Shown here: positions 8,414 through 30,963 of the stretch, piece by piece
Layout of the letters: each line of letters starts with the position of its first letter
Numbering within the stretch: position 1 is the stretch's first letter
Assembly (NCBI GenBank): GCA_017543595.1
Contig: JAFYFU010000019.1
Location: 1-35,621 of the forward strand
Origin: Ruminococcus sp.
GTDB lineage: Bacteria; Bacillota; Clostridia; Oscillospirales; Ruminococcaceae
DNA: 35,621 nucleotides
Reading direction: 5' to 3'
The notes under the pieces: model-generated
Told to the model about the DNA's origin: nothing
The model's input: the letters and a program-made list of their open reading frames with translations, nothing else
Databases searched by the model: none
Translations under genes and position numbers: made by a program

Positions 8414-8574
8414 GTATCAATATGGGAAAAAGTCGCTTATTTTGCAAGGTATTATACCATATTTCACACAGCCTTGTCAATAGTTTTGCGATAATTTTTT
8501 TCTTTGAGCGATACCGCTTGACAAAAACTTTCCTCTGTTCTGGAAAGATTATAAAATACAAGGAGGTTCCGCCT
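8414..8574 (+). other. Untranslated leader of rpoB (about 155 nt)
   Basis: The stretch 8223-8574 contains no gene. It holds the rpmB terminator, the twin rpoBC promoters and this leader. In the leader a weak stem GCAAGG/CCTTGT (about 8443-8477) can form, followed by a T-rich run near 8492-8504, and the ribosome binding site AAGGAGG lies at 8560-8566. I see no rplJ-type leader fold and no clear attenuator. A TTGACA at 8518 has no -10 box at a usable distance. Confidence 0.5.
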
Positions 8575-11500
8575 ATGGTGAATGTAACACCTAAGCAGCT
8601 GGGAAAAAATGTCAGAATGAGCTTCGGTAAAATTACCGAGCCTCTTGAAATGCCTAACCTTATCGAGATTCAGAAAAACTCCTACCAATGGTTCAGGGGT
8701 GAGGGACTCCGTGAGGTTTTCCGTGATATGACTGCCATTACCGACTACAACAACAATCTGGTACTCAATTTCAAGGATTACAGGTTCGATGAAACTCCGA
8801 AATATACCCTCGCCGAATGTAAGTCAAGAGGTGCTACCTATCAGGTGGCTATGAGGGCTACCGCTACTCTCTGCAACAAGGAAACGGGTGCTGTAAGCGA
8901 AAGTGAGATTTATATGGGAGATTTCCCCCTCATGACCGACAGCGGTACTTTTGTTATCAACGGTGCGGAGCGTGTAATAGTTTCTCAGCTTGTCCGTTCG
9001 CCCGGTGTCTACTACGGCTTTGAAAAGGACAAGACAGGTAAAGACCTTTTCAATACGACAGTTATCCCCAACAGAGGTGCTTGGCTTGAATATGAAATGG
9101 ACTCCAACGATGTTGTGTACGTCCGCATAGACAAGAACAGAAAAATTCCCCTCACTACTTTTATCCGTGCGCTCGGCATAGGTTCTGACGAGGAAATTTA
9201 TGAGCTTTTCGGTCCTGATGAAAGACTTAAACAGACTATTCTCCAGAAAGACCAGACTAAGAATATGTCCGAAGCCCTCATTGACGTTTACAAGAAACTC
9301 CGCCCCGGTGAGCCTCCTACGGTTGAGAGTGCGCAGCAGCACCTCGACAATCTTTTCTTTGATGCGAAAAGATATGACCTCTGCCGTTTCGGAAGATACA
9401 AATACAATAAAAAACTCGGTATAGCCTCCCGTCTTACGGGTCATGTTCTCGCCCAGCCCGTCATAAATCCCCTCACAGGCGAAATAATGGCTGAAACAGG
9501 CGAAACGGTTTCCTACGAAAAAGCCTGCGAAATCGAACAGGCAGGCGTTTACTCCGCTTTCGTAACCGTTGAGGCAAAGGAATACATTACAAATGAACGT
9601 GGCGAAACAACTATCCAGATGGTTGAAAGAGTTGCAAAGATAATCGGCAACGGAATGGTTGACATCAAGGGATATGTAAATTTTGATGCCGAAAAATACG
9701 GAATCAATGAGAAAGTTTCTTTCAAGGTTCTCCGTGAGATACTCGAAAGTTCAATTGATGAGGACGAAATCGAGGAAAATATCAAGAAAAAAGTTGACCA
9801 GCTCGTTCCCAAGCATATCATTCTCGATGATATCTTCGCAACTATAAGCTACTTTATAAATCTCTGCGAGGGTGTCGGCACTGTTGACGATATCGACCAC
9901 CTCGGAAACAGACGTATAAGAAGTGTCGGCGAACTTCTCCAGAATCAGTTCCGCATAGGCTATGCCCGCATGGAACGTGGTATAAAAGAGAGAATGAATA
10001 TCCAGACTCAGGACGTAAATACTCTCACTCCCCAGACAATTATCAATATAAGACCTATTTCTTCGGCTATGAAAGAATTTTTCTGTTCTTCACCCCTTTC
10101 ACAGTTCATGGACCAGAACAATCCCCTTGCCGAACTCACACACAAGAGAAGACTTTCGGCTCTCGGTCCGGGCGGTCTTTCCCGTGACCGTGCAGGATTT
10201 GAAGTACGTGACGTTCATTACAGCCACTACGGAAGAATGTGTCCTATTGAGACTCCCGAAGGTCCGAACATCGGTCTTATCTCCTACCTTGCAACTTTCG
10301 CAAGAATAAACGAATACGGTTTCATAGAAGCTCCTTACAGGAGAGTTGACAAGGGAACAGGCACAGTTACCACAGATGTAGTTTATATGACTGCCGATAT
10401 GGAGGACAACTTCATTGTCGCTCAGGCTAACGAACCCCTCACAGAGGACAACAAACTCGCCCGTCCGAGAGTAAACGCACGTTACCGTGAACAGATTCTC
10501 GAAATTGAACGTGAAAAAGTTGACTACATGGACGTTTCGCCTAAAATGGTTGTTTCCGTTGCTACTTCAATGATTCCTTTCCTTGAAAACGATGACGCAA
10601 ACCGTGCGCTCATGGGTTCAAATATGCAGAGACAGGCTGTTCCGCTCCTCAAAACAGAACGTCCCTTTGTCGGCACGGGTATGGAATACAAAGCCGCTGT
10701 CGATTCGGGTGTATGCATAGTCGCAGAACAGGACGGAAGAATAACTTATGTCGATGCGGATAAAATAAACATGATTGGCAAGAACGGAATTGAATACAAG
10801 TATGAGCTTATCAAGTTCAAGCGTTCAAATCAGGGTACTTGCGTAAACCAGCGTCCGATAGTTTCTGTCGGCGAAGAAGTTACAAAGGGTCAGGTTCTCG
10901 CAGACGGTCCTGCTACTGCCGATGGCGAAATCTCCCTCGGTAAAAATGCCCTCATCGGCTTCATGACATGGGAAGGCTATAACTATGAAGATGCCGTTCT
11001 CCTCAATGAAAGACTCGTAAGAGAAGATGTTTTCACATCTGTTCATATAGAAGAATATGAAATAGAGTGCCGTGACACAAAACTCGGACCGGAAGAAATT
11101 ACCCGTGATATCCCCAATGTCGGTGACGATGCCCTCGCAAACCTCGATGAAAACGGTATCATAAGAATAGGTTCGGAAGTTACTTCGGGCGATATTCTCG
11201 TAGGTAAGGTAACTCCCAAGGGCGAAACCGAACTCACTGCCGAAGAAAGACTTCTCCGTGCGATATTCGGCGAAAAAGCCCGTGAAGTAAGAGATAACTC
11301 ACTTAAAGTTCCTCACGGTGCGGCAGGTGTTATTGTTGATGTAAAAATATTTACAAGAGAAAACTGTGACGAACTCAGTGCAGGCGTAAATATGCGTGTT
11401 ATCTGCTATATCGCTCAGAAGAGAAAAATCACTGTCGGCGATAAAATGGCAGGTCGTCACGGAAACAAAGGTGTCGTTTCAAGAATACTCCCCGAAGAAG

Positions 11501-12504
11501 ATATGCCTTTCCTCCCTGACGGCACACCGCTTGATATCGTACTCAACCCCCTCGGCGTTCCTTCACGTATGAATATCGGTCAGGTTCTCGAAGTTCACCT
11601 CGGAATGGCTTGCAAGGCTCTCGGCTGGCACATCATGACACCCGTATTTGACGGCGCACATGAAGACGATATCCGTGAGTGTTTCAAGGAGGCAAACGCA
11701 CACAGTCTCGCTCACAGGGACGATATGTTTGAACTCAAAGCCATGGACAAGGTTATAAATCCCAATGCTCTTGAATTTAAAGAGGACTGTAAGTTTACTC
11801 TTTATGACGGACGTACGGGCGAAAAGTTCGACAACCGTGTAACTGTCGGCTATATGTATTACCTCAAACTCCACCACCTCGTTGACGATAAGATACACGC
11901 ACGTTCGGTAGGTCCTTACGCACTCGTTACACAGCAGCCCCTCGGCGGTAAGGCGCAGTTCGGCGGTCAGCGTTTCGGAGAAATGGAAGTTTGGGCTTTG
12001 GAGGCTTACGGCGCAGCTTATACGCTTCAGGAAATCCTCACAGTTAAATCAGATGACACTATCGGTCGTGTAAACACCTATGAGGCTATCGTAAAGGGAC
12101 AGAATGTTCCCACTCCTGGTATTCCCGAATCATTCAAGGTACTTATCAAGGAAATGCAGTCACTCTGTCTTGATGTAAAAGTTCTTGACATAAATCAGCA
12201 GGAAATCGACCTCAAACAGAACTTTGACGATGACCCGCTCCCCTCAAAGGAAACTTTCGCAGATGAAAATACTGCCGACAATACAGACTATTCCGATGAC
12301 GATATCCGTGATGAAGGTTATCTCCTTGACGGTGAAGAAGGCTCTGATATTGACGATGTTTCCGATGACGGAGATTTCAATGACGACTACAACGATGATT
12401 ACAATGACGACTACGATGACGACTTTGACGATGAAGAACCTATCGAGGACGACGAGGCTTTCTCGGCATTTGACCTTGACGATTCAGACCCGTTCGATGA
12501 TTAA
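8575..12504 (+). CDS. rpoB: DNA-directed RNA polymerase subunit beta
   Basis: The protein has 1309 residues from ATG 8575 behind AAGGAGG; the frame is open to 8422 but that part lies in the promoter and leader. The rifampicin region ([26 protein letters not shown], about 509-534) has the drug-sensitive residues Asp, His and Ser at the classic resistance positions. The fork loop [17 protein letters not shown] follows, and the active-site lysine region [19 protein letters not shown] lies near 954. The C-terminus beyond about 1214 is a roughly 95-residue acidic extension rich in D, E, N, Y and F, with a short repeat [12 protein letters not shown] near 1268-1280. This is much longer than the core needs. 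The genes rplJ and rplL, usually upstream, are absent. Confidence 0.98.
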
Positions 12505-19171: not shown

Positions 19172-20539
19172 TTATTCCTGTTCTCCGAAAGTGCGGAGTG
19201 CTTTAAGCATTATCGCACATTCAAGACGTTTCTTTTCAAGCTGACATGAAAGCTTGTAAGCCTTTCTTATGTCGCCCATGTACTGGTAATTATTTGCATT
19301 ACAGCCGCCGCTGCAATAGAATTTTGCCCAGCAGTCACGGCAGTCGGATTTTGAATATATATGTGCTTTGGCGAAATCCTCTTTCATTTCCTGATTGAAA
19401 GTACCCTCATCTATGTTGCCCATTTTGTATTCATCTTTTCCGACAAACTGGTGACAGGGGTAAATATCTCCGTCAGGAGTAATTGCAACATAGTCATTTC
19501 CGCAGCCGCAGCCCCTTAATCTCTTTATGGCGCAAGGTCCTTGGTCAAGGTCTATCATGAAATGGAAGAAATTAAACTTTCCGCCTGCTTTTTCGTTTTC
19601 AATGATTCTTCCCGCAAGCCTTTCATATTCCTTGAAAACAGCGGGCAAATCTCCCTCTGTAAGTGCATATTCATCATTGTCGCCTACAACGGGTTCAATG
19701 GAAATCTGGTCAAATCCCTCTTTGTAGAGTGCAAATACATCATCTGAGAAGTCAAGGTTTTTATTTGTGAAAGTTCCTCTTACATAGTATTCCTTGTCAC
19801 CTCTGCCTTCAACAAGTTTCTTGTATTTCGGGAGGATTATGTCATAACAGCCCTGACCGTTGGGGAATACACGGAAATAGTCATTTACGGATTTTCTGCC
19901 GTCAATCGAAAGCACAACATTTGACATTTCTTTATTGATGAAATCAATCTTGTCATCATCGAGAAGAAGTCCGTTGGTTGTTATGGTAAATCTGAAAGTC
20001 TTGTTGTATTCTTTCTCACGGCTTCTTGCATATTCGATAATTTGCTTTACAACATCAAAATTCATAAGCGGTTCACCGCCGAAGAAATCAAGTTCAAGGG
20101 TGGGTCTGTCGCCTGATTTTTCAAGGAGGAAATCTATTGCGTGTTTTCCTGTCTCAAAAGTCATTAATTTTCTGCCCTTGCCGAAATCTCCCGTTGATGC
20201 AAAGCAATATTTGCATCTTAACTGACAGTCGTGTGCGATATTCAGGCACATAGCCTTGACGGGCGAGGAAACCGAATACTGTGCGAATTTTTCATATTCA
20301 TCTTCCGAGAACAATATTTTGTCGTTGTATAATTCAACTATTTCCTGATAGCAGGATTCTATATCTTCGGGTTCATAAGCCCTTGAAAGCTTTTCTATAA
20401 CGTCCTGCGGACAGTTCTCCTCAAAGGGCGGTGCAACGTTGTCGAGGAGGTCATATGTGAGTTCATCAACGATATGCACTCCCCCACTGTTGACATCAAG
20501 AACTATATTGAATCCTCTGAGTTTATACTTATGTATCAT
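19172..20539 (-). CDS. scfB: SCIFF peptide radical SAM maturase
   Basis: The protein has 455 residues. The radical SAM cluster motif is Cys105-x3-Cys109-x2-Cys112 (CQLRCKYCF). The C-terminal SPASM region carries Cys344, Cys346, Cys362, Cys400, Cys403, Cys409, Cys413 and Cys432, enough for two auxiliary Fe-S clusters. The first 90 residues form the leader-binding part expected of RiPP maturases. Enzymes of this family (thioether cross-link-forming SCIFF maturases) attach cysteine sulfurs of the SCIFF peptide to neighbouring alpha carbons. The matching precursor lies upstream at 22211-22348. Unusually, a TIR-domain gene lies between the two and overlaps this gene by 11 nt (ATGATACATAA), so the maturase is translationally coupled to it. 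Confidence 0.95.
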   Translation of the reverse strand: MIHKYKLRGFNIVLDVNSGGVHIVDELTYDLLDNVAPPFEENCPQDVIEKLSRAYEPEDIESCYQEIVELYNDKILFSEDEYEKFAQYSVSSPVKAMCLNIAHDCQLRCKYCFASTGDFGKGRKLMTFETGKHAIDFLLEKSGDRPTLELDFFGGEPLMNFDVVKQIIEYARSREKEYNKTFRFTITTNGLLLDDDKIDFINKEMSNVVLSIDGRKSVNDYFRVFPNGQGCYDIILPKYKKLVEGRGDKEYYVRGTFTNKNLDFSDDVFALYKEGFDQISIEPVVGDNDEYALTEGDLPAVFKEYERLAGRIIENEKAGGKFNFFHFMIDLDQGPCAIKRLRGCGCGNDYVAITPDGDIYPCHQFVGKDEYKMGNIDEGTFNQEMKEDFAKAHIYSKSDCRDCWAKFYCSGGCNANNYQYMGDIRKAYKLSCQLEKKRLECAIMLKALRTFGEQE

Positions 20540-22130
20540 AATTATTATCCTTTCTTTCCAGTCGGTTTAAATATCTTTTTTCTGCCTTTTTGTTGTGAAT
20601 GAAAATAAACGGAATTATCGCAAACAACGGAATAATTTCCCACAACAGCATACTTAAAGCTGACATAAAATCTATATCATACGATTCCAGTATTCTTGAT
20701 GTAAAAATTCCGCATAACGGCGCAAGCACCACAAAATGCAGAAACATTATTCCAAGAATCGCAGTTGATGATATTTTTTCCTTTTGATATTTCTTTATGG
20801 CTTCTTCACGCTGTGCGAGATTTTTCTTGCCTGACTGATAATCAGCGGCATTTTCGTCATATGCAAGCCTTTTAATCATTCGTGCCTTTGCAGCCTTATT
20901 GTTTTTATATGTCTTTCGTGACATAACAAACACAAAAACAATGAATATAATCCACCAGACACCTGAAAATATTCCCACCTGCGATTCAATGCTTAATTTG
21001 TTGTCAAAAATTCCGAAAGAAAGCAGTGGGCTTGCAACTGAGGCGAAAACAAGTGAAATAAGAAATGACGGCAAATATGATTCATATTCCGTCTTGTATA
21101 ATTTCTCAGCCATGCGTTTTTCATCAATCATTTGCAGATGTTTTTCCTGTTCGTATCTGCGGATAGTATTAAGCTGACTTTTCATCTGCTTTTCGTACTG
21201 TGCAAAAAGCGAACTCAACTGCTGTTTTGTATCAGATGCAACGGAAAATATTTCCTTAATGCTGTTCGTTATATTTTTCTGAGCGTCATATTTTTCCATG
21301 TCCTGTGCCTGAAAGCCCTGTAATTCTTCGGGCAGACCGCCTACGAGCATATTCTTATAACACGGAATAATTAATCTGCTTTTGTCCTCTTTCATGAGGT
21401 CAAGAAACCTGCTCCATTCATTTCTCACCCATACGGCATTGAAATTTTCTTTTGAAGTACCCACGCAGAGCATGACCTGAGAGGAATTTATCGCCGAAAA
21501 TATATATGGTTCAAACTCCGTGCCTAATTTATCTTTGAGAGTTACTGCCGCATAGAATACTTTATAGCCCTCTTTTGTGAGTGTGCTGTATAAATCATGG
21601 GCGACAAAAGAATCTTCCGTTCTTTCGCCTGTTTCGTCCGATTCCTTGTAGCATATGAAAATATCAAAGGGTTTTTCCTTTGCGGAAACCGACATTATAT
21701 GCTGTTGGATATCGTCTATTTTTTCAGCCTCACGGGTATAAATCGTATGCATTATCTCATCGGCATATTCAAGGGCTTTTGAATATTCTGGAATATTGAA
21801 TATTCTTTCAAAATCCGCACGGTGACAGGTCGGAATTTTTTTATTTGTTTCGGGGTCGTCAACATATTCTATTCCGTACCTGCAAAGGCAAAGTCCCCAG
21901 TAAGCCTCTGATTCTTCGGGGAATATGTCAACTATTTCCCTGTACACCTCGGCAGCCCTGTCAAATTCGCAGTCAAAGCGCAGGCGGTGGGCTTTTTTAA
22001 ATAAATTAAGTCTGTTTTCGGTGCTTATATCGGGTATTGTCTGATAGCTCCCGCAGTAAGAGCATTTACAGATTCTCATACCGCTGATTATTTCGAGATT
22101 CGCACCGCACATTTTACAGTTGAAAACCAT
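20529..22130 (-). CDS. TIR-domain membrane protein with N-terminal zinc ribbon
   Basis: Read from ATG 22130 (AAGGGA upstream) the protein has 533 residues. Residues 1-30 form a zinc ribbon (Cys5, Cys8, Cys23, Cys26). Residues 40-150 are helical and contain a tetratricopeptide-like unit (FDRAAEVYREIVDIFPEESEAYWGLCLCRYGIEYVDDP). The TIR domain spans about 154-280 (FDIFICYKESD; YKVFYAAVTLKDKLGTEFEPYI; VWVRNEWSRF). Glu238 occupies the place of the catalytic glutamate of NAD-cleaving TIR domains. A helical linker (about 290-350) leads to four membrane segments (354-376, 385-404, 453-476, 488-511). Similar soluble zinc-ribbon/TIR proteins are common in gut Clostridia with no known role. It lies inside the SCIFF locus and overlaps scfB by 11 nt. 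Whether it cleaves NAD, senses phage or acts in RiPP biology is unknown. Confidence 0.88.
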   Translation of the reverse strand: MVFNCKMCGANLEIISGMRICKCSYCGSYQTIPDISTENRLNLFKKAHRLRFDCEFDRAAEVYREIVDIFPEESEAYWGLCLCRYGIEYVDDPETNKKIPTCHRADFERIFNIPEYSKALEYADEIMHTIYTREAEKIDDIQQHIMSVSAKEKPFDIFICYKESDETGERTEDSFVAHDLYSTLTKEGYKVFYAAVTLKDKLGTEFEPYIFSAINSSQVMLCVGTSKENFNAVWVRNEWSRFLDLMKEDKSRLIIPCYKNMLVGGLPEELQGFQAQDMEKYDAQKNITNSIKEIFSVASDTKQQLSSLFAQYEKQMKSQLNTIRRYEQEKHLQMIDEKRMAEKLYKTEYESYLPSFLISLVFASVASPLLSFGIFDNKLSIESQVGIFSGVWWIIFIVFVFVMSRKTYKNNKAAKARMIKRLAYDENAADYQSGKKNLAQREEAIKKYQKEKISSTAILGIMFLHFVVLAPLCGIFTSRILESYDIDFMSALSMLLWEIIPLFAIIPFIFIHNKKAEKRYLNRLERKDNNYDT

Positions 22131-22154
22131 AATTAATCCCTTATCCCATAATAG

Positions 22155-22186
22155 AAAAAAAGAGCCGTATGCAGGCATACAGGCTC
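22155..22186 (-). terminator. Intrinsic terminator/attenuator after the SCIFF precursor
   Basis: On the minus strand GAGCC-T-GTATG, a 4-nt loop, CATAC-GGCTC is followed by seven T. It begins 25 nt after the SCIFF stop and ends 25 nt before the TIR start. As no good promoter lies between it and the TIR gene, TIR and maturase mRNA probably arise by read-through. Confidence 0.85.
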
Positions 22187-22210: not shown

Positions 22211-22348
22211 TTATTTCTCGCACTTCTGGTTAGCAACAGTGCAAGATGTCTTGCAGGCTGACTGACATGAAGCCTGACATTTGCCGCAGCCGCCCTTCTT
22301 AGCGGACTCTTTAAGGTTTGCCTTGTTGATAGTTCTGATATGTTTCAT
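22211..22348 (-). CDS. scfA: SCIFF ribosomal peptide precursor (six cysteines in forty-five residues)
   Basis: The peptide has exactly 45 residues from ATG 22348, with AGGAGGG upstream. Six cysteines at 21, 24, 28, 32, 36 and 43 give the defining SCIFF pattern. The N-terminal part (MKHIRTINKANLKESAKKGG) is the leader recognised by the maturase. SCIFF peptides are nearly universal in Clostridia, are converted by a radical SAM enzyme to thioether-linked products, and their final role is unknown. The gene has its own strong promoter, a 5' hairpin and a downstream terminator, which suggests abundant expression compared with the downstream genes. The open frame continues 15 codons further upstream but without a ribosome binding site. 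Confidence 0.97.
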   Translation of the reverse strand: MKHIRTINKANLKESAKKGGCGKCQASCQSACKTSCTVANQKCEK

Positions 22349-22372
22349 TTCCTTTACCCTCCTGTACAGTTT

Positions 22373-22397
22373 CACGGTGACAACCGTTCGCACCGTG
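22373..22397 (-). promoter_or_regulatory. 5' hairpin of the SCIFF transcript
   Basis: On the minus strand CACGGTG (22397-22391) pairs perfectly with CACCGTG (22379-22373) around an 11-nt loop. It starts within a few bases of the predicted transcription start (about 22402), the position of known 5' stabilising stems. Confidence 0.65.
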
Positions 22398-27105: not shown

Positions 27106-28059
27106 TTATATGATATAGAACCATGTTTCGTCCTGTTCGATTTCTTTCTTTTCGGGCTTTGAACTGCCGTACTTGAAATTGAGTTCCTGTGCCTTGATAC
27201 TTACCCTTGCACCGCTTGAAACGGATTTTGTTATAAAGGCATTACCGCCTATGACAACATTTTTTCCGACAACGGTTTCACCGCCTAGAATAGACGCACC
27301 CGAATATATTGTAACGTTATCCTCTATTGTGGGGTGACGTTTTTTATTTTTAAGGGACTGACCGCCTCTTGTGGACAACGCACCGAGGGTTACTCCCTGA
27401 TAAATTTTAACATTGTCGCCGATTTCGGTAGTTTCGCCGATAACTATTCCCGTTCCGTGGTCTATGAAAAAATATTTACCGATAGAAGCTCCGGGGTGAA
27501 TGTCAATTCCCGTTTTGCTGTGGGCGTATTCCGTCATAATTCTCGGAATCATGGGAACTTTCAGGAGAAACAATTCATGTGCTATGCGGTTTACGAATAT
27601 CGCAAAAAGCCCCGGATATGAAAATATAATTTCGTCCTTGCTGAAAGCTGCGGGGTCTCCGTCAAAAGCCGCCTGAACGTCTGTTTCTATATATTCCCTT
27701 ATTTTCGGGATTTTTTCAAGGAAAGCAAAAGTAAGCTCCCGTGACTTATAGGCTATTTTTTCATCGCAGTTATTTTCGTATTCGCAGTTGTAACGCAGAA
27801 CTCTTTTAATCTGTTCCGTGAGATTATATATTATATCTTCAAGAATCATAGATGTGTTGTTTCTCAGGGTACAGCTTTTGAGGGTTTTTGTCCTGAAATG
27901 TGCGGGGAAAATTATACTCCTGAGCTGGGAAATTATATTTATCAGTATATCTTCATCAGGGTGTTTGAAGGGCTTTATGCAGTCAATCGCCCTGCCGTTT
28001 TCGTAGTCGCTTGTAATCGTATCAACAAGATTATTTATTCTTTCTTCCGTAATATCCAT
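27106..28059 (-). CDS. cysE: Serine O-acetyltransferase (CysE/EpsC type)
   Basis: The protein has 317 residues. It transfers acetyl from acetyl-CoA to L-serine, giving O-acetylserine for cysteine synthesis. The N-terminal helical domain (about 1-165) is followed by the left-handed beta-helix of hexapeptide repeats (about 185-290). The catalytic pair is Asp186 (TGIDIHPGASIG) and His201 (DHGTGIVIGETTEIGDNV). The longer N-terminus, as in the EpsC-like group, distinguishes it from the short Bacillus CysE. No cysK is adjacent. The strong C-terminal tail ends in ETWFYII; a C-terminal Ile is what cysteine synthase binds in the cysteine synthase complex, so complex formation is possible. Start ATG 28059 follows GGAGG. 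Confidence 0.93.
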   Translation of the reverse strand: MDITEERINNLVDTITSDYENGRAIDCIKPFKHPDEDILINIISQLRSIIFPAHFRTKTLKSCTLRNNTSMILEDIIYNLTEQIKRVLRYNCEYENNCDEKIAYKSRELTFAFLEKIPKIREYIETDVQAAFDGDPAAFSKDEIIFSYPGLFAIFVNRIAHELFLLKVPMIPRIMTEYAHSKTGIDIHPGASIGKYFFIDHGTGIVIGETTEIGDNVKIYQGVTLGALSTRGGQSLKNKKRHPTIEDNVTIYSGASILGGETVVGKNVVIGGNAFITKSVSSGARVSIKAQELNFKYGSSKPEKKEIEQDETWFYII

Positions 28060-28145: not shown

Positions 28146-28388
28146 TCAGTATAATTCCTGTTCAAGATTTCGGAATTTTTCAGTGTCAAAAAATTCCGTT
28201 ATTGTTATATCAAGCCCGTCACAAAGTTTTTTTATTGTTACAATTCCGATATTTTTTACATGATGATTAACAATACAATTAACAGTTGACTGCGTAACTC
28301 CCGAAATTGTGCAAAGTTTGTTTACAGTAATATTTTTCTGGCTGCAAAGTTCAATTATGCGTTCTGCAACGATTTCTGAAATTCCCAT
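28146..28388 (-). CDS. Small XRE-family helix-turn-helix regulator
   Basis: The protein has 80 residues from ATG 28388, with GGAGAGTGAT upstream; the frame is open further but that part holds the promoter. Residues 6-70 are an XRE/Cro-like helix-turn-helix: IVAERIIELCSQKNITVNKLCTISGVTQSTVNCIVN, then VTIKKLCDGLDITITEFFD. There is no extra sensor domain. It is a DNA-binding regulator of the size of phage Cro/C repressors. A copy of a 16-bp operator (28450-28465) sits at its own promoter, and two further copies bracket the divergent promoter at 28547-28575, so it probably controls itself and the small peptide gene. Ligand, if any, is unknown. Confidence 0.88.
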   Translation of the reverse strand: MGISEIVAERIIELCSQKNITVNKLCTISGVTQSTVNCIVNHHVKNIGIVTIKKLCDGLDITITEFFDTEKFRNLEQELY

Positions 28389-28422
28389 AGTATCACTCTC
28401 CAATTTAATTATTGTTTTAATT

Positions 28423-28431
28423 ATGATACCA
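28423..28431 (-). promoter_or_regulatory. Extended -10 promoter of the XRE gene
   Basis: On the minus strand TGG directly precedes TATCAT (28428-28423), an extended -10 motif. No good -35 box is visible; the region at -34 to -49 is occupied by operator copy C. Start predicted near 28416. Confidence 0.5.
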
Positions 28432-28449
28432 TTTTTAATAGAAAACACT

Positions 28450-28465
28450 TGTTGATAAATCGTTA
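28450..28465. promoter_or_regulatory. Operator copy C (XRE promoter side)
   Basis: TGTTGATAAATCGTTA, 13 of 16 bases identical to the perfect palindrome at 28581. It covers about -34 to -49 of the XRE gene promoter. Confidence 0.65.
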
Positions 28466-28533
28466 CTTTCGACAAGAATTTTTTCGTTAGGCATAATGCA
28501 CAAATCGAGCATTTAAACTTTGTACACAAAGAT

Positions 28534-28549
28534 TAACGATAAAACGTTG
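28534..28549. promoter_or_regulatory. Operator copy A (peptide promoter, upstream)
   Basis: TAACGATAAAACGTTG, 14 of 16 bases identical to the copy at 28581. It overlaps the first three bases of the -35 box at 28547. Confidence 0.7.
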
Positions 28550-28575
28550 ACTTTTTATGGATTATGTGTTATAAT
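28547..28575 (+). promoter_or_regulatory. Promoter of the 26-residue peptide gene
   Basis: TTGACT (28547-28552), a 17-nt spacer and TATAAT (28570-28575), start predicted near 28582. It is bracketed by operator copies A and B. Confidence 0.82.
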
Positions 28576-28580
28576 ACATA

Positions 28581-28596
28581 TAACGATAAATCGTTA
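28581..28596. promoter_or_regulatory. Operator copy B (perfect palindrome at +1)
   Basis: TAACGAT-AA-ATCGTTA: perfect 7-bp arms lying over the predicted transcription start of the peptide gene. Bound protein would block initiation. Confidence 0.75.
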
Positions 28597-28655
28597 ATAG
28601 AAAATCTGCGGTAAATCAACTGTACTGATAGTCCGTATACGAAAGGAGGATAATT

Positions 28656-28736
28656 ATGGGTTGTGTTATTGGTGGCTGGCTGGCTATAATCACTTACATT
28701 GGTGCAGGTCATGTAATCAAATATTATTGCAGATAA
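28656..28736 (+). CDS. 26-residue hydrophobic peptide
   Basis: A 27-codon frame (ATG 28656, TAA 28734-28736) sits 6 nt after AAAGGAGGA, a near-perfect ribosome binding site. The product starts MGCVIGGW, has one hydrophobic helix (residues about 4-21, with LAIITYIGAG) and ends KYYCR. Cysteines 3 and 25 flank the membrane segment. The gene has its own promoter, an about 74-nt leader with a possible stem (near 28608-28636) and a strong terminator, which together form a transcript of about 225 nt. This is compelling evidence for expression. It could be a membrane-active peptide (toxin-like or bacteriocin-like), a small regulatory membrane protein, or a signal peptide. No family is recognised. Confidence 0.7.
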   Translation: MGCVIGGWLAIITYIGAGHVIKYYCR

Positions 28737-28766
28737 TCAATAACTAAATGGTTACTTAACAACAAA

Positions 28767-28806
28767 AAAGTCTTTCGTGTACAGTGCGAAAGACTTTATT
28801 TTTTAT
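28767..28806 (+). terminator. Intrinsic terminator of the peptide transcript
   Basis: AAAGTCTTTCG (28767-28777) and CGAAAGACTTT (28787-28797) make an 11-bp perfect stem with a 9-nt loop, followed by ATTTTTTTAT. Confidence 0.92.
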
Positions 28807-28818
28807 ATAATGCAAATA

Positions 28819-28847
28819 TTGACATATGTTTAATAATCTGTTATAAT
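28819..28847 (+). promoter_or_regulatory. Perfect promoter of the ABC exporter operon
   Basis: TTGACA (28819-28824), a 17-nt spacer and TATAAT (28842-28847). No operator copy of the XRE type lies here. Confidence 0.88.
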
Positions 28848-28883
28848 TAATTTATTATTAAAATAATATACAGGGGGATTTTT

Positions 28884-29624
28884 ATGGGAAATGTACTCGA
28901 AGTAAAAGAACTTTCCAAAAAATATACCAAAGTCTTTGCAGCCGAAAAGGTTTCCTTTGAGATAGGCGAAGGGGAAATTTTCGCTCTCATAGGTCCTAAC
29001 GGCGCAGGAAAAACCACTACAATACGAATGATTGCAACTCTGCTTACTCCCACTGAGGGAGATGCAACAGTCGCAGGTTACAGCATTGTAAAAAACCCGT
29101 CAAAAGTCAGGGAATGTATTACATATCTCCCAGATGAGGCAGGTGCTTATAAGACCATGAAAGGCATTGAATATCTCAAATTCATGGGCGGACTTTTCAC
29201 CGAGGACAGCAAAAAAATCAATGAATTTGTCGAAAGGGCTAAGGAAATAAACGGTCTCGGCGAAAGATTAAATGATAAAATAGGAACTTACAGCCGTGGA
29301 ATGATTAGAAAATTACTGCTTTCCCGTGCCGTAATGACAAAGCCGAAACTTGCAATTCTTGACGAACCAACAAGCGGTCTTGATGTCCTCAATGCCCTTG
29401 ATATAAGAAAAACCATAAAGCGTCTTGCCCGTGAGGAGAATATGTCTTTTCTTCTGTCGTCACACAATATGCTTGAAATAGAATTTGTTTCTGACCGTGT
29501 GGGAATAATCTCAAAAGGGCATTTAATGGTTACGGGCAGAACAGATGAACTGAAAGAAAGATATAACGCTCCCAATCTCGAAGAAGTTTTTGAAAGGGTG
29601 GTGCTTGAAAATGAAGTTCATTAA
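28884..29624 (+). CDS. ABC exporter ATP-binding subunit (NatA-like)
   Basis: The protein has 246 residues. Walker A GPNGAGKTT (about 38-46), a signature reading YSRGM instead of LSGGQ, Walker B LAILDEPTSGLD and the switch histidine in LLSSHNM are all present. The YS(K/R)GM signature is usual in the NatA branch of Firmicutes, so it is not a defect. NatA-type ATPases drive export of Na+ or of antimicrobial compounds through an ABC-2 permease. The permease gene starts 14 nt before this stop. Ribosome binding site is AGGGGGA. The substrate cannot be read from sequence; the neighbouring peptide gene makes a peptide substrate conceivable. Confidence 0.93.
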   Translation: MGNVLEVKELSKKYTKVFAAEKVSFEIGEGEIFALIGPNGAGKTTTIRMIATLLTPTEGDATVAGYSIVKNPSKVRECITYLPDEAGAYKTMKGIEYLKFMGGLFTEDSKKINEFVERAKEINGLGERLNDKIGTYSRGMIRKLLLSRAVMTKPKLAILDEPTSGLDVLNALDIRKTIKRLAREENMSFLLSSHNMLEIEFVSDRVGIISKGHLMVTGRTDELKERYNAPNLEEVFERVVLENEVH

Positions 29625-30963
29625 CCTGCTGAAAAAAGAACTTAAAGAACTCATCAATGCCCAGATGATAGCAAGCCTTTTGGTTGTTATGGCTTTGCTT
29701 GTTGCCATGGGAAATATGATGTCCTCAACAATAAATGAAATCTCAAATACAGAGTATAAAGTATCTCTCAGCGACAGGGACGACACGGATTTTACAAAAT
29801 CATTATTAGACCAGCTTGAAAAAGACGGTTCTGTTATTACACTTATCAAAACAGAGGGCGACAATTATTCCGAAATACTCAAAGAAAACAACCTCGACAG
29901 CATTATAATTATTCCCGAAGGCTTTACGGATTTGATAAACAAAAACGAAAAACCCGAACTTATAACTGTTTCAAGAATGGAATCCGCCGCCATGATGTCA
30001 AATATCAGCAATCATACTTCCGATGTCACAAACCTTATAAATACATATATATACAAGGAACTGTCCAAAAAAGCGGGAATCACGGAAGAAGAACTGAATT
30101 ATATGACAAGTCCCGTGAATATTGTCGAAAATACCGTTGTTGCCGATAAATCCGCAAATATCTCGGTTGAGACAATAATGAACAATGTCATGATGAAAAA
30201 TCAGATACTTCCCATTGTGGTATTTATACTTATCACTATGGTTTCGCAGACAATTATGAACGCCATCGCAAACGAAAAAATTGACAAAACCCTTGAAACT
30301 CTCCTGTCTGCACCTGTTTCAAGAAGTTCTATAATCGGAGCAAAAATGCTTGCGGCGGCAATAGTTGCCATGCTTAATGCGGCTTTTTACATGGTAGGCT
30401 TTTCGTCTTTCATGTCAAAAACAACCAACAGCACAAATTTATCATCAAATATGGACAGCTTAAAAGAAATGGCAGAGGGCGCAAGTTCTGTCGGGGACAT
30501 ACTTTCAACTGAGGCGAAACTCTCACAGCTTGGATTGTCCCTCGGAATTACAGATTATCTTCTCGTAGGCTTACAGCTTTTCATAACAATAATGATATGT
30601 CTTTCGGTATCAATAATACTCGGTGCGCTTGTAAATGATACAAAATCATCACAGACAATGATTATGCCCCTGCTTATGCTTGCGATGATTCCCTATATGA
30701 TATCTATTTTTGCGGATATAAACAGTCTGCCTGTTGTATTCAAAACGCTTGTATATGCAATACCTTTCACACATACTTTCTCTGCCATGAGTAATTTAAT
30801 GTTCGGGCATTACAGCTTGTTCTTCGGCGGAATTATATATCAGATTATAGTTCTTGCGGTGTGTATGTTCTTTGCACTCAGACTTTTCAACTCGGACAAA
30901 ATACTCACAATATCGCTTAATTTCGGAAAAAAAGACAAGCAGAAAACAAACTCTGATACGTGA
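29611..30963 (+). CDS. ABC-2 type permease (NatB-like)
   Basis: The protein has 450 residues from ATG 29611 inside the end of natA (AAAGGGTGG upstream). One N-terminal membrane segment (about 17-36) is followed by a large extracytoplasmic domain (about 37-195) and five further membrane helices (starting near ILPIVVFILITMVSQTIMNAI). The motif EKIDKTLETLLSAPVSRSSIIGAKMLAA is typical of ABC-2 permeases. This layout is that of NatB and related Na+/drug exporters. The 14-nt overlap with the ATPase gene is diagnostic of a two-subunit transporter operon. Confidence 0.92.
   Translation: MKFINLLKKELKELINAQMIASLLVVMALLVAMGNMMSSTINEISNTEYKVSLSDRDDTDFTKSLLDQLEKDGSVITLIKTEGDNYSEILKENNLDSIIIIPEGFTDLINKNEKPELITVSRMESAAMMSNISNHTSDVTNLINTYIYKELSKKAGITEEELNYMTSPVNIVENTVVADKSANISVETIMNNVMMKNQILPIVVFILITMVSQTIMNAIANEKIDKTLETLLSAPVSRSSIIGAKMLAAAIVAMLNAAFYMVGFSSFMSKTTNSTNLSSNMDSLKEMAEGASSVGDILSTEAKLSQLGLSLGITDYLLVGLQLFITIMICLSVSIILGALVNDTKSSQTMIMPLLMLAMIPYMISIFADINSLPVVFKTLVYAIPFTHTFSAMSNLMFGHYSLFFGGIIYQIIVLAVCMFFALRLFNSDKILTISLNFGKKDKQKTNSDT

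What the first reader, a model, noticed from the sequence alone, without database searches (positions are those of the whole stretch)
28146..28806. XRE repressor, three matching operators and a divergent 26-residue membrane peptide
Seen directly: three copies of a 16-bp element, with B (28581-28596) a perfect palindrome, A (28534-28549) matching at 14/16 and C (28450-28465) at 13/16. A and B bracket a strong promoter (28547-28575) and C sits at the XRE gene promoter. The controlled transcript of about 225 nt encodes only a 26-residue hydrophobic peptide with cysteines at 3 and 25, behind a near-perfect ribosome binding site and before an 11-bp terminator. Small XRE repressors often control themselves and a divergent gene. 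A regulator devoted to one tiny membrane peptide suggests a toxin-like, bacteriocin-like or signalling unit. It is too short for most gene callers.
Basis: partly seen in the sequence, partly recalled or inferred. Interest (0 to 1): 0.85.

Follow-up and report, generated by a model that had tools for sequence, protein, structure and literature searches.

The report
Double-locked micropeptide gene in Ruminococcus
A gut bacterium carries a tiny gene for a 26-residue membrane peptide that seems to be locked twice, by a dedicated repressor protein and by a messenger RNA whose two ends appear to hold hands, and in related species the RNA ends stay similar while the peptide between them changes almost completely.

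Summary
In detail: an 80-residue HTH_26 (XRE) repressor gene, three operator boxes, a strong promoter, a 26-codon ORF with a good SD and a terminator. In related loci the operator changes with the regulator's recognition helix; in the own assembly, boxes within 2 mismatches occur only here. In three species (of 125 genus genomes) with this XRE-transcript-ABC order, leader (79-88% identical) and terminator (77-90%) are conserved beyond 4-fold degenerate sites (49-57%), while the ORF between is barely alignable (17-36%). Two of the three carry a second, conserved tiny ORF that the window lacks. The leader folds into a hairpin whose 7-nt loop (ACUGUAC) is fully complementary to the 7-nt terminator loop (GUACAGU). 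A fourth XRE-controlled micropeptide gene (L010) has the same architecture with compensatory changes. Strict loop pairing occurs in 4 of 10 eligible regions; 0 of 2000 loop shuffles reach that, though three of the four are homologous. Best reading: a toxin-like membrane micropeptide, repressed by XRE, whose mRNA closes 5'-to-3' by a kissing loop that restrains translation or decay. Translation, binding and function are untested. No Rfam, Pfam or NCBIfam family matched RNA or peptides.

The parts
28146..28388 (-). XRE (HTH_26) repressor gene, 80 aa
   Evidence: 86% and 89% identical relatives in L043 and L044, each divergent from a small transcript followed by the same ABC genes
28450..28465 (.). 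operator box C, 13/16, upstream of the XRE gene's own putative -10 (TATCAT, minus strand, 28428-28423, read by eye)
   Evidence: also seen in L043/L006, not seen in L044/L014 (by eye)
28534..28549 (.). operator box A, overlaps the first three bases of the -35
   Evidence: matching box in 29 of 30 close relatives with a recognisable promoter, read by eye
28547..28575 (+). promoter TTGACT-17-TATAAT, extended -10
   Evidence: 11/12
28581..28596 (.). operator box B over the expected transcription start (about 28582, inferred)
   Evidence: cognate box in 22 of 30 close relatives
28607..28637 (+). leader RNA hairpin UGCGG...CCGUA, apical loop ACUGUAC at 28619-28625
   Evidence: -7.5 kcal/mol; 8 pairs kept in 4 sequences, 3 with compensatory changes
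28644..28649 (+). Shine-Dalgarno AGGAGG
28656..28736 (+). 26-codon membrane peptide ORF (p2)
28767..28797 (+). intrinsic terminator, loop GUACAGU at 28779-28785, complementary 7/7 to the leader loop
28819..28847 (+). separate promoter-like site (12/12) before the downstream ABC transporter genes 28884-29624 and 29590-30963

Best explanation
This is a toxin-like (membrane-active) micropeptide gene with two locks. Lock 1: dimers of the 80-residue XRE protein bind box A (over the -35) and box B (over the start site) and shut the promoter; box C lets the protein damp its own gene. Lock 2: once the roughly 225-nt mRNA is complete, the 7-nt loop of its terminator hairpin pairs with the 7-nt loop of a hairpin 19-49 nt upstream of the start codon. 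This kissing complex closes the mRNA 5'-to-3' next to the SD and most likely hinders ribosome loading at the standby region (or slows decay) until it is opened. The peptide is free to vary in sequence as long as it stays a short hydrophobic segment with a basic C-terminus. Shown by comparison: box-regulator covariation, conserved and covarying leader hairpin and terminator, loop-loop complementarity. Inferred: repression, translation, the effect of the kissing loop, membrane activity.
For: Operators: the 20 Asp38 regulators (NDIVN...) with a cognate box B have CGG in its half-sites (one, L025, has CGA in one half); the two with Cys38 (window, L125/L043) have CGA in A and B; L054 with Tyr38 has CGATATATCG; more distant groups have TAGTGAT, TAACTC and TAACCC half-sites. 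Boxes only at this locus in the own assembly. RNA: leader identity 45/51, 41/52 and 44/52, terminator 27/31, 24/31 and 28/31, against 4-fold degenerate sites of the ABC ATPase gene 50/102, 60/105 and 58/108 and ORF 17-36%. Leader loop and terminator loop are 7/7 complementary in all three species, and 7/7 with one G-U in L010, in a hairpin of the same shape. Strict test: of 94 regions 10 have a terminator with a 7-nt loop, 4 of these 10 have such a partner loop; shuffled loops give 0.284 on average, at most 3 in 2000. On an unforced MAFFT alignment of the four transcripts (A2) 26 pairs are kept in 104 of 104 cells; 12 show compensatory changes (3 leader, 2 kissing, 7 terminator stem), 0 of 500 shuffles as good in covariation score. 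Chance that a random 7-nt terminator loop matches a leader hairpin loop this well: 5.5e-4 (window), 6.7e-4 (L010). Peptides: p2 of 3 species no acidic residue (P=0.005), C-terminal K/R excess (0 of 2000), hydrophobic (P=0.045).
Against: Only four sequences, three of them homologous, so the strict loop match has two independent instances; the loop-loop covariation rests on L010 alone, and for the kissing helix by itself 30 of 500 shuffles did as well. Seven of the 12 compensatory pairs lie in the terminator stem, where any terminator would show them. A permissive loop-loop scan found 8 of 94 loci against 6.06 expected; L010 also has one unrelated pair of equal score there. If any 7-mer of the leader may be the partner, the chance rises to about 2% per locus. 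The energy-only fold of the whole transcript does not form the leader hairpin as drawn. In L006, L014 and L010 the terminator's best fold has a 5-nt loop, so a 7-bp kiss must open one closing pair. Second-position T is not enriched in the ORFs (P=0.98 for p2), and each ORF alone is open by chance in 16-46% of shuffles. The RNA model finds 4 of 125 genus genomes at E below 1e-12, but these are the four it was built from; 22 weaker candidates examined had no terminator kiss. No transcript, translation or toxicity data.
Confidence: 0.5

Rival explanations
1. The RNA is the product: a short XRE-controlled regulatory RNA whose two loops hold it together or serve as contact sites, and the ORF is incidental.
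For: Leader and terminator are conserved while the ORF is not. Close XRE relatives face short transcripts with no clear SD plus ORF: L011, L023, L027 beside a serA-like gene, L007 and L009 in related places, L139, L144, L154 elsewhere.
Against: An SD and an open frame are kept in all four; p2 keeps composition and charge pattern; p1 of L006/L014 is conserved as protein (BLOSUM score 58, 0 of 1000 permutations).
Confidence: 0.17
2. A leaderless bacteriocin or exported signal peptide: p1 and p2 are made for export, and the ABC transporter next door exports them or gives immunity; XRE times production. Sequence variability would reflect strain-specific activity.
For: ABC ATPase (best NCBIfam hit DrrA, below that model's cut-off) and ABC-2 permease in the window; ATPase and start of the permease follow also in L006 and L014. 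Tandem tiny ORFs in two of the three. Rapid divergence of p2.
Against: L010 has the same RNA architecture beside a serA-like gene, with no ABC gene recognised by eye in its 3-kb locus; L146 and L149 have XRE plus the ABC ATPase gene but no peptide. The ABC genes have their own 12/12 promoter-like site behind the terminator (also in L006 and L014).
Confidence: 0.15
3. A classical type I toxin-antitoxin pair with an antisense RNA antitoxin that targets the leader or terminator loop.
For: Size, hydrophobicity and 5'-3' closure resemble type I toxin mRNAs (aapA3: passages of PMC6733600). Antisense promoter-like sites exist near the ATPase start: 9/12 in the window and 10/12 in L006, 6 nt apart relative to the start codon.
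Against: The hexamers of those two sites differ, L014's 9/12 sites lie elsewhere, L010 has none on the antisense strand, and such sites are expected by chance. No Pfam or NCBIfam family at E up to 10.
Confidence: 0.1
4. The peptide is an inducer or co-repressor of the XRE protein (feedback signal).
For: Gene pair and shared operators.
Against: The XRE protein is only 80 residues, mostly HTH; close relatives (86-89%) face quite different peptides.
Confidence: 0.05

Closest known systems
Type I toxin mRNAs with 5'-3' closure (hok/Sok; aapA/IsoA of Helicobacter)
   Same: Short toxin-encoding mRNA in which the 3' end pairs back to the 5' region and blocks the ribosome site (PMC6733600, passages seen)
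   Different: There a 3' anti-SD masks the SD directly and an antisense RNA is the antitoxin; here two hairpin loops are complementary, one upstream of the SD; no conserved antisense promoter was seen, and a protein repressor gene with operators is present.
Fst/Ldr family (par of pAD1)
   Same: Short TM peptide with charged C-terminus; terminator loop used for RNA pairing (PMC7472228, passages seen)
   Different: There the terminator loop pairs with a separate antitoxin RNA transcribed convergently; no family match here.
Small HTH proteins: C proteins of restriction systems, prophage Lp1 protein 11 (3b7h)
   Same: About 80-residue HTH; 3b7h E=3e-14, C.BclI E=0.0013; PADLOC control protein E=4e-5
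   Different: Neighbours are cysE-like and ABC genes; no relative in viral contigs (close relatives only); boxes A and B bracket a divergent promoter 47 bp apart.
tisB (recalled, no call)
   Same: Membrane peptide under a DNA-binding repressor, translation controlled at a ribosome standby site
   Different: LexA and the IstR-1 sRNA there; here XRE and an intramolecular loop pair.

Membership tests
HTH_26 / XRE regulators | HTH domain over Pfam gathering score | tested here: met
   42.3 bits vs 22, E=8.8e-11
HTH_26 / XRE regulators | binds inverted-repeat operators at its own locus | tested here: inconclusive
   comparative covariation only; no binding data
Type I toxin-antitoxin | antisense RNA antitoxin overlapping the toxin gene | tested here: not met
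   no conserved antisense promoter; simple consensus scan only, window and L006 sites lie 6 nt apart but with different hexamers
Type I toxin-antitoxin | short hydrophobic toxic peptide | tested here: inconclusive
   short and hydrophobic; toxicity not testable here
Type I toxin-antitoxin | 5'-3' long-distance interaction restraining translation | tested here: inconclusive
   loop-loop complementarity conserved in 4 of 4, changed in L010 only; effect on translation untested
Fst/Ldr toxins | match to a curated family model | tested here: not met
   0 families for 7 peptides at E up to 10 in NCBIfam and Pfam
Leaderless bacteriocins | export and antimicrobial activity without leader | not testable with these tools
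   ABC genes adjacent in 3 species, none recognised at L010
Known Rfam RNA | match over gathering score | tested here: not met
   0 in window and in 12 related loci

The most novel reading that the evidence does not exclude
A new RNA scaffold: a bacterial mRNA whose leader hairpin and terminator form a 5'-3' kissing complex around an exchangeable, fast-changing membrane micropeptide cassette, under a dedicated XRE repressor; one of several short transcripts that a Ruminococcus branch of HTH_26 repressors controls from paired operators.
Probability: 0.4. Interest if true: 0.82.

Novelty: new variant of a known kind. Interest (0 to 1): 0.62.

Why it matters
If true, it is a micropeptide module in a gut commensal in which the non-coding ends, not the peptide sequence, carry the conserved identity. 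That would explain why such genes escape homology searches, suggests a search rule (leader loop complementary to terminator loop around a 20-35 codon ORF) and adds loop-loop 5'-3' closure, without an evident antitoxin RNA, to the ways bacteria keep a membrane peptide silent.

Tried and rejected
Peptide search in the genus: 7 of 125 genomes at E up to 1, but only the window's own copy is convincing (others E 0.2 or worse). Leader pattern with 3 mismatches in 396 family genomes, of which 8 (own included) are of the window's genus: only the own genome. Pattern in viral contigs: 0. DNA search of phages and plasmids: 1 and 5 records with weak partial hits; the Priestia plasmid hit covers only the terminator region and lies between unrelated genes. 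XRE relatives in viral contigs: none. L010 region in the genus: 5 of 125 genomes at E up to 0.01, only G124 with the whole; its second copy of the terminator end (L163) is an unrelated repeat. RNA model R1 in 125 genomes: 88 have a hit at E up to 1; of those below the four members I examined 22 candidates, none with a terminator kiss, 17 of the 22 without a terminator by the script's rule; the rest were not examined. Rfam at E up to 10 on 28380-28900: 10 sub-threshold hits, none near its gathering score. Fold-back of the terminator's 5' arm onto the SD region (11 pairs in the window by eye) was put second because I do not see it in L010; it was not calculated. Paper searches (listings and abstract starts seen, lists capped) showed no description of this element; most subscription papers are not held.

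Full report
What is there. The window is a stretch of contig C123 of a 2.41-Mb draft genome; the closest relatives of its XRE protein are in Ruminococcus MAGs. Between a serine O-acetyltransferase gene (cysE/epsC-like, 27106-28059, minus) and an ABC transporter pair (28884-29624 ATPase, 29590-30963 ABC-2 permease) lie an 80-residue XRE gene (minus) and, divergent, a promoter, a 26-codon ORF and a terminator.

The regulator and its boxes. The protein matches Pfam HTH_26 (E=8.8e-11); the nearest solved relative is prophage Lp1 protein 11 (3b7h, E=3e-14). Related regulators sit next to matching boxes, and the boxes change with the recognition helix. Of 37 close relatives (68% identity or more, distinct regions, window included), 30 have a divergent promoter by the rule. 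By eye, 29 of these 30 (not L156) carry a box A that ends in the first bases of the -35; its left arm is often imperfect (TGTCGG), so the script's own arm threshold was met by only 8 of 30. A cognate box B after the -10 is present in 22 of 30, 47 bp from A in 16 of the 22. Regulators with Asp38 and a cognate box B (20) have CGG half-sites, L025 with CGA in one half; the window and L125/L043 (Cys38) have CGA; L054 (Tyr38, no promoter by the rule) has CGATATATCG. L044, 89% identical to the window protein and with Asp38, has CGG. The own assembly holds no other copy of the window's box within 2 mismatches, although it holds 12 HTH_26 hits, so this repressor looks devoted to this locus. Box C lies upstream of the XRE gene's own putative -10; of the two nearest relatives only L043 has it.

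The same locus in two other species. G053 (L006, the same DNA as L043) and G033 (L014, the same as L044) have the XRE gene, promoter, small transcript and ABC ATPase gene in the same order. The left neighbour is shared only by L014 (start of the cysE-like gene, by eye); in L006 it is a TrpB-like gene. Both carry two tiny ORFs: p1 (MILGWILPIICTPVLPAPYFWRWLR; MFWWLFPIISSPIITIPHISRWFN), conserved as protein (0 of 1000 permutations), and p2 in the place of the window's peptide. The window lacks p1. p2 reads MGFLIYSGAVGISTAIYSIWVLRHR in L006 and MFTSISASACCAGIAYGLALAWGATYLKWKWGL in L014.

Conserved RNA around a variable ORF. The leader is 88.2, 78.8 and 84.6% identical and the terminator 87.1, 77.4 and 90.3%, whereas the p2 ORF gives 16.5, 36.3 and 33.3% (over gapped alignments) and the 3' spacer 42.5-58.1%. 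For scale, 4-fold degenerate sites of the ABC ATPase gene are identical at 50/102, 60/105 and 58/108. Leader and terminator are therefore held by selection and p2 is not, as a sequence. As a type of peptide it seems to be: no acidic residue in the three p2 (P=0.005), C-terminal K/R excess (0 of 2000 shuffles), hydrophobicity (P=0.045). Against this, second-position T is not enriched (P=0.98) and each ORF alone would be open by chance in 16-46% of shuffles.

The kissing loops. The leader folds into UGCGG-internal loop-UCA-ACUGUAC-UGA-internal loop-CCGUA (-7.5 kcal/mol; -8.4 in both relatives). Its 7-nt loop is the exact complement of the terminator's 7-nt loop GUACAGU in all three species. A fourth XRE-controlled gene, L010 (G124, beside a serA-like gene), encodes MWFVAGALLGESLGYFLFWR; its leader hairpin has the same shape (5 pairs, internal loop, 4 pairs, 7-nt loop ACCAUAC) and its terminator loop is GUGUGGU, complementary 7/7 with one G-U. 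On the MAFFT alignment of the four transcripts, made without structure, the proposed 26 pairs are kept in 104 of 104 cells; 12 pairs show changes on both sides (7 of them in the terminator stem, 3 in the leader, 2 in the kissing helix); 0 of 500 shuffles reach the covariation score, and sliding the partners by 1-3 columns drops paired cells to 30-54%. The leader hairpin alone gives 7 of 500. The kissing helix alone has 28 of 28 cells paired with 2 double changes and one wobble, but 30 of 500 shuffles do as well, because only L010 differs. Chance of such a match between a terminator loop and a leader hairpin loop is about 6e-4 per locus, or 2% if any 7-mer of the leader counts. Among 94 divergent regions a permissive scan is not above chance (8 loci against 6.06); the strict form (both loops 7 nt, 7/7, at most one G-U) is found in 4 of the 10 regions that have a terminator with a 7-nt loop, against 0.284 on average and at most 3 in 2000 shuffles. 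Three of those four are homologous. The energy-only fold of the whole transcript does not show the leader hairpin as drawn, and such a fold cannot contain a kiss; in three of the four the terminator folds best with a 5-nt loop.

How rare. In the genus, the leader pattern is found in 3 of 125 genomes and the leader model in 4 of 125 at E below 1e-12, the four it was built from. Of the weaker candidates 22 were examined and none had a terminator kiss. None in viral contigs; no Rfam family; no peptide family.

Mechanism proposed. XRE dimers on A and B close the promoter by covering the -35 and the start site (inferred from positions). When repression lifts, the mRNA is made; once the terminator exists its loop can bind the leader loop, 19-49 nt upstream of the start codon, in the region where ribosomes first load (standby idea recalled; effect inferred). 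This resembles in purpose the 5'-3' closure of aapA3 mRNA, where a 3' anti-SD masks the SD (PMC6733600, passages read), but uses loop-loop pairing and, as far as simple promoter scans show, no conserved antisense antitoxin. The alternative that the RNA itself is the product is real, because close XRE relatives face short transcripts with little or no ORF. The link to the ABC transporter is not general: no ABC gene was recognised at L010, and L146 and L149 have XRE next to the ABC ATPase gene without a peptide.

Verdict. The operators are convincing by comparison; the covarying RNA architecture is good but rests on four sequences, two of them independent cases; the peptide's function is unknown. 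I file it as a new variant of small, doubly controlled membrane-peptide genes, not as a member of type I toxin-antitoxin systems, since the antisense RNA test was not met.

Noticed in passing
L011, L023, L027 (beside a serA-like gene, by eye), L007, L009: XRE-controlled transcripts of about 110-180 nt with strong terminators and no clear SD plus ORF; L009 and L007 could encode MVNFLKKLLGLGF.. and MKFLYKLFGLGF; L023 has GGGGGG followed by a 4-codon frame.
   Followed up: partly
L139, L144, L154: Short XRE-promoter transcripts without an evident ORF, sharing a CAUUCUC stretch before a terminator; possible trans-acting sRNA. L144 (Pfam UPF0122) and L154 (by eye) lie beside ylxM.
   Followed up: partly
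L146, L149: The XRE gene lies directly upstream of a close relative of the window's ABC ATPase gene, with box A but no peptide, so the XRE-ABC neighbourhood is not limited to peptide-bearing species.
   Followed up: partly
L043-L122: HTH_26 regulators with operators that track the recognition helix (TAACGG, TAACGA, TAGTGAT, TAACTC, TAACCC groups): a natural data set for decoding regulator-operator specificity.
   Followed up: partly
L008: XRE-controlled 24-aa ORF MLSTWCFACFWVAGGCNVLLGLLK with terminator, without a clear loop pairing.
   Followed up: partly
window 28469-28497: Second promoter-like site (TCGACA-17-CATAAT) between boxes C and A; L043 has a stronger-looking version by eye.
   Followed up: no
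window 22211-22393 and 19172-20539: SCIFF ranthipeptide precursor (TIGR03973) and its radical SAM maturase (TIGR03974), with a TIR-domain protein gene (20529-22178) between them.
   Followed up: partly
window 8422-12504: rpoB (Pfam Rpb2 domains) with a long Asp-rich C-terminal tail.
   Followed up: no
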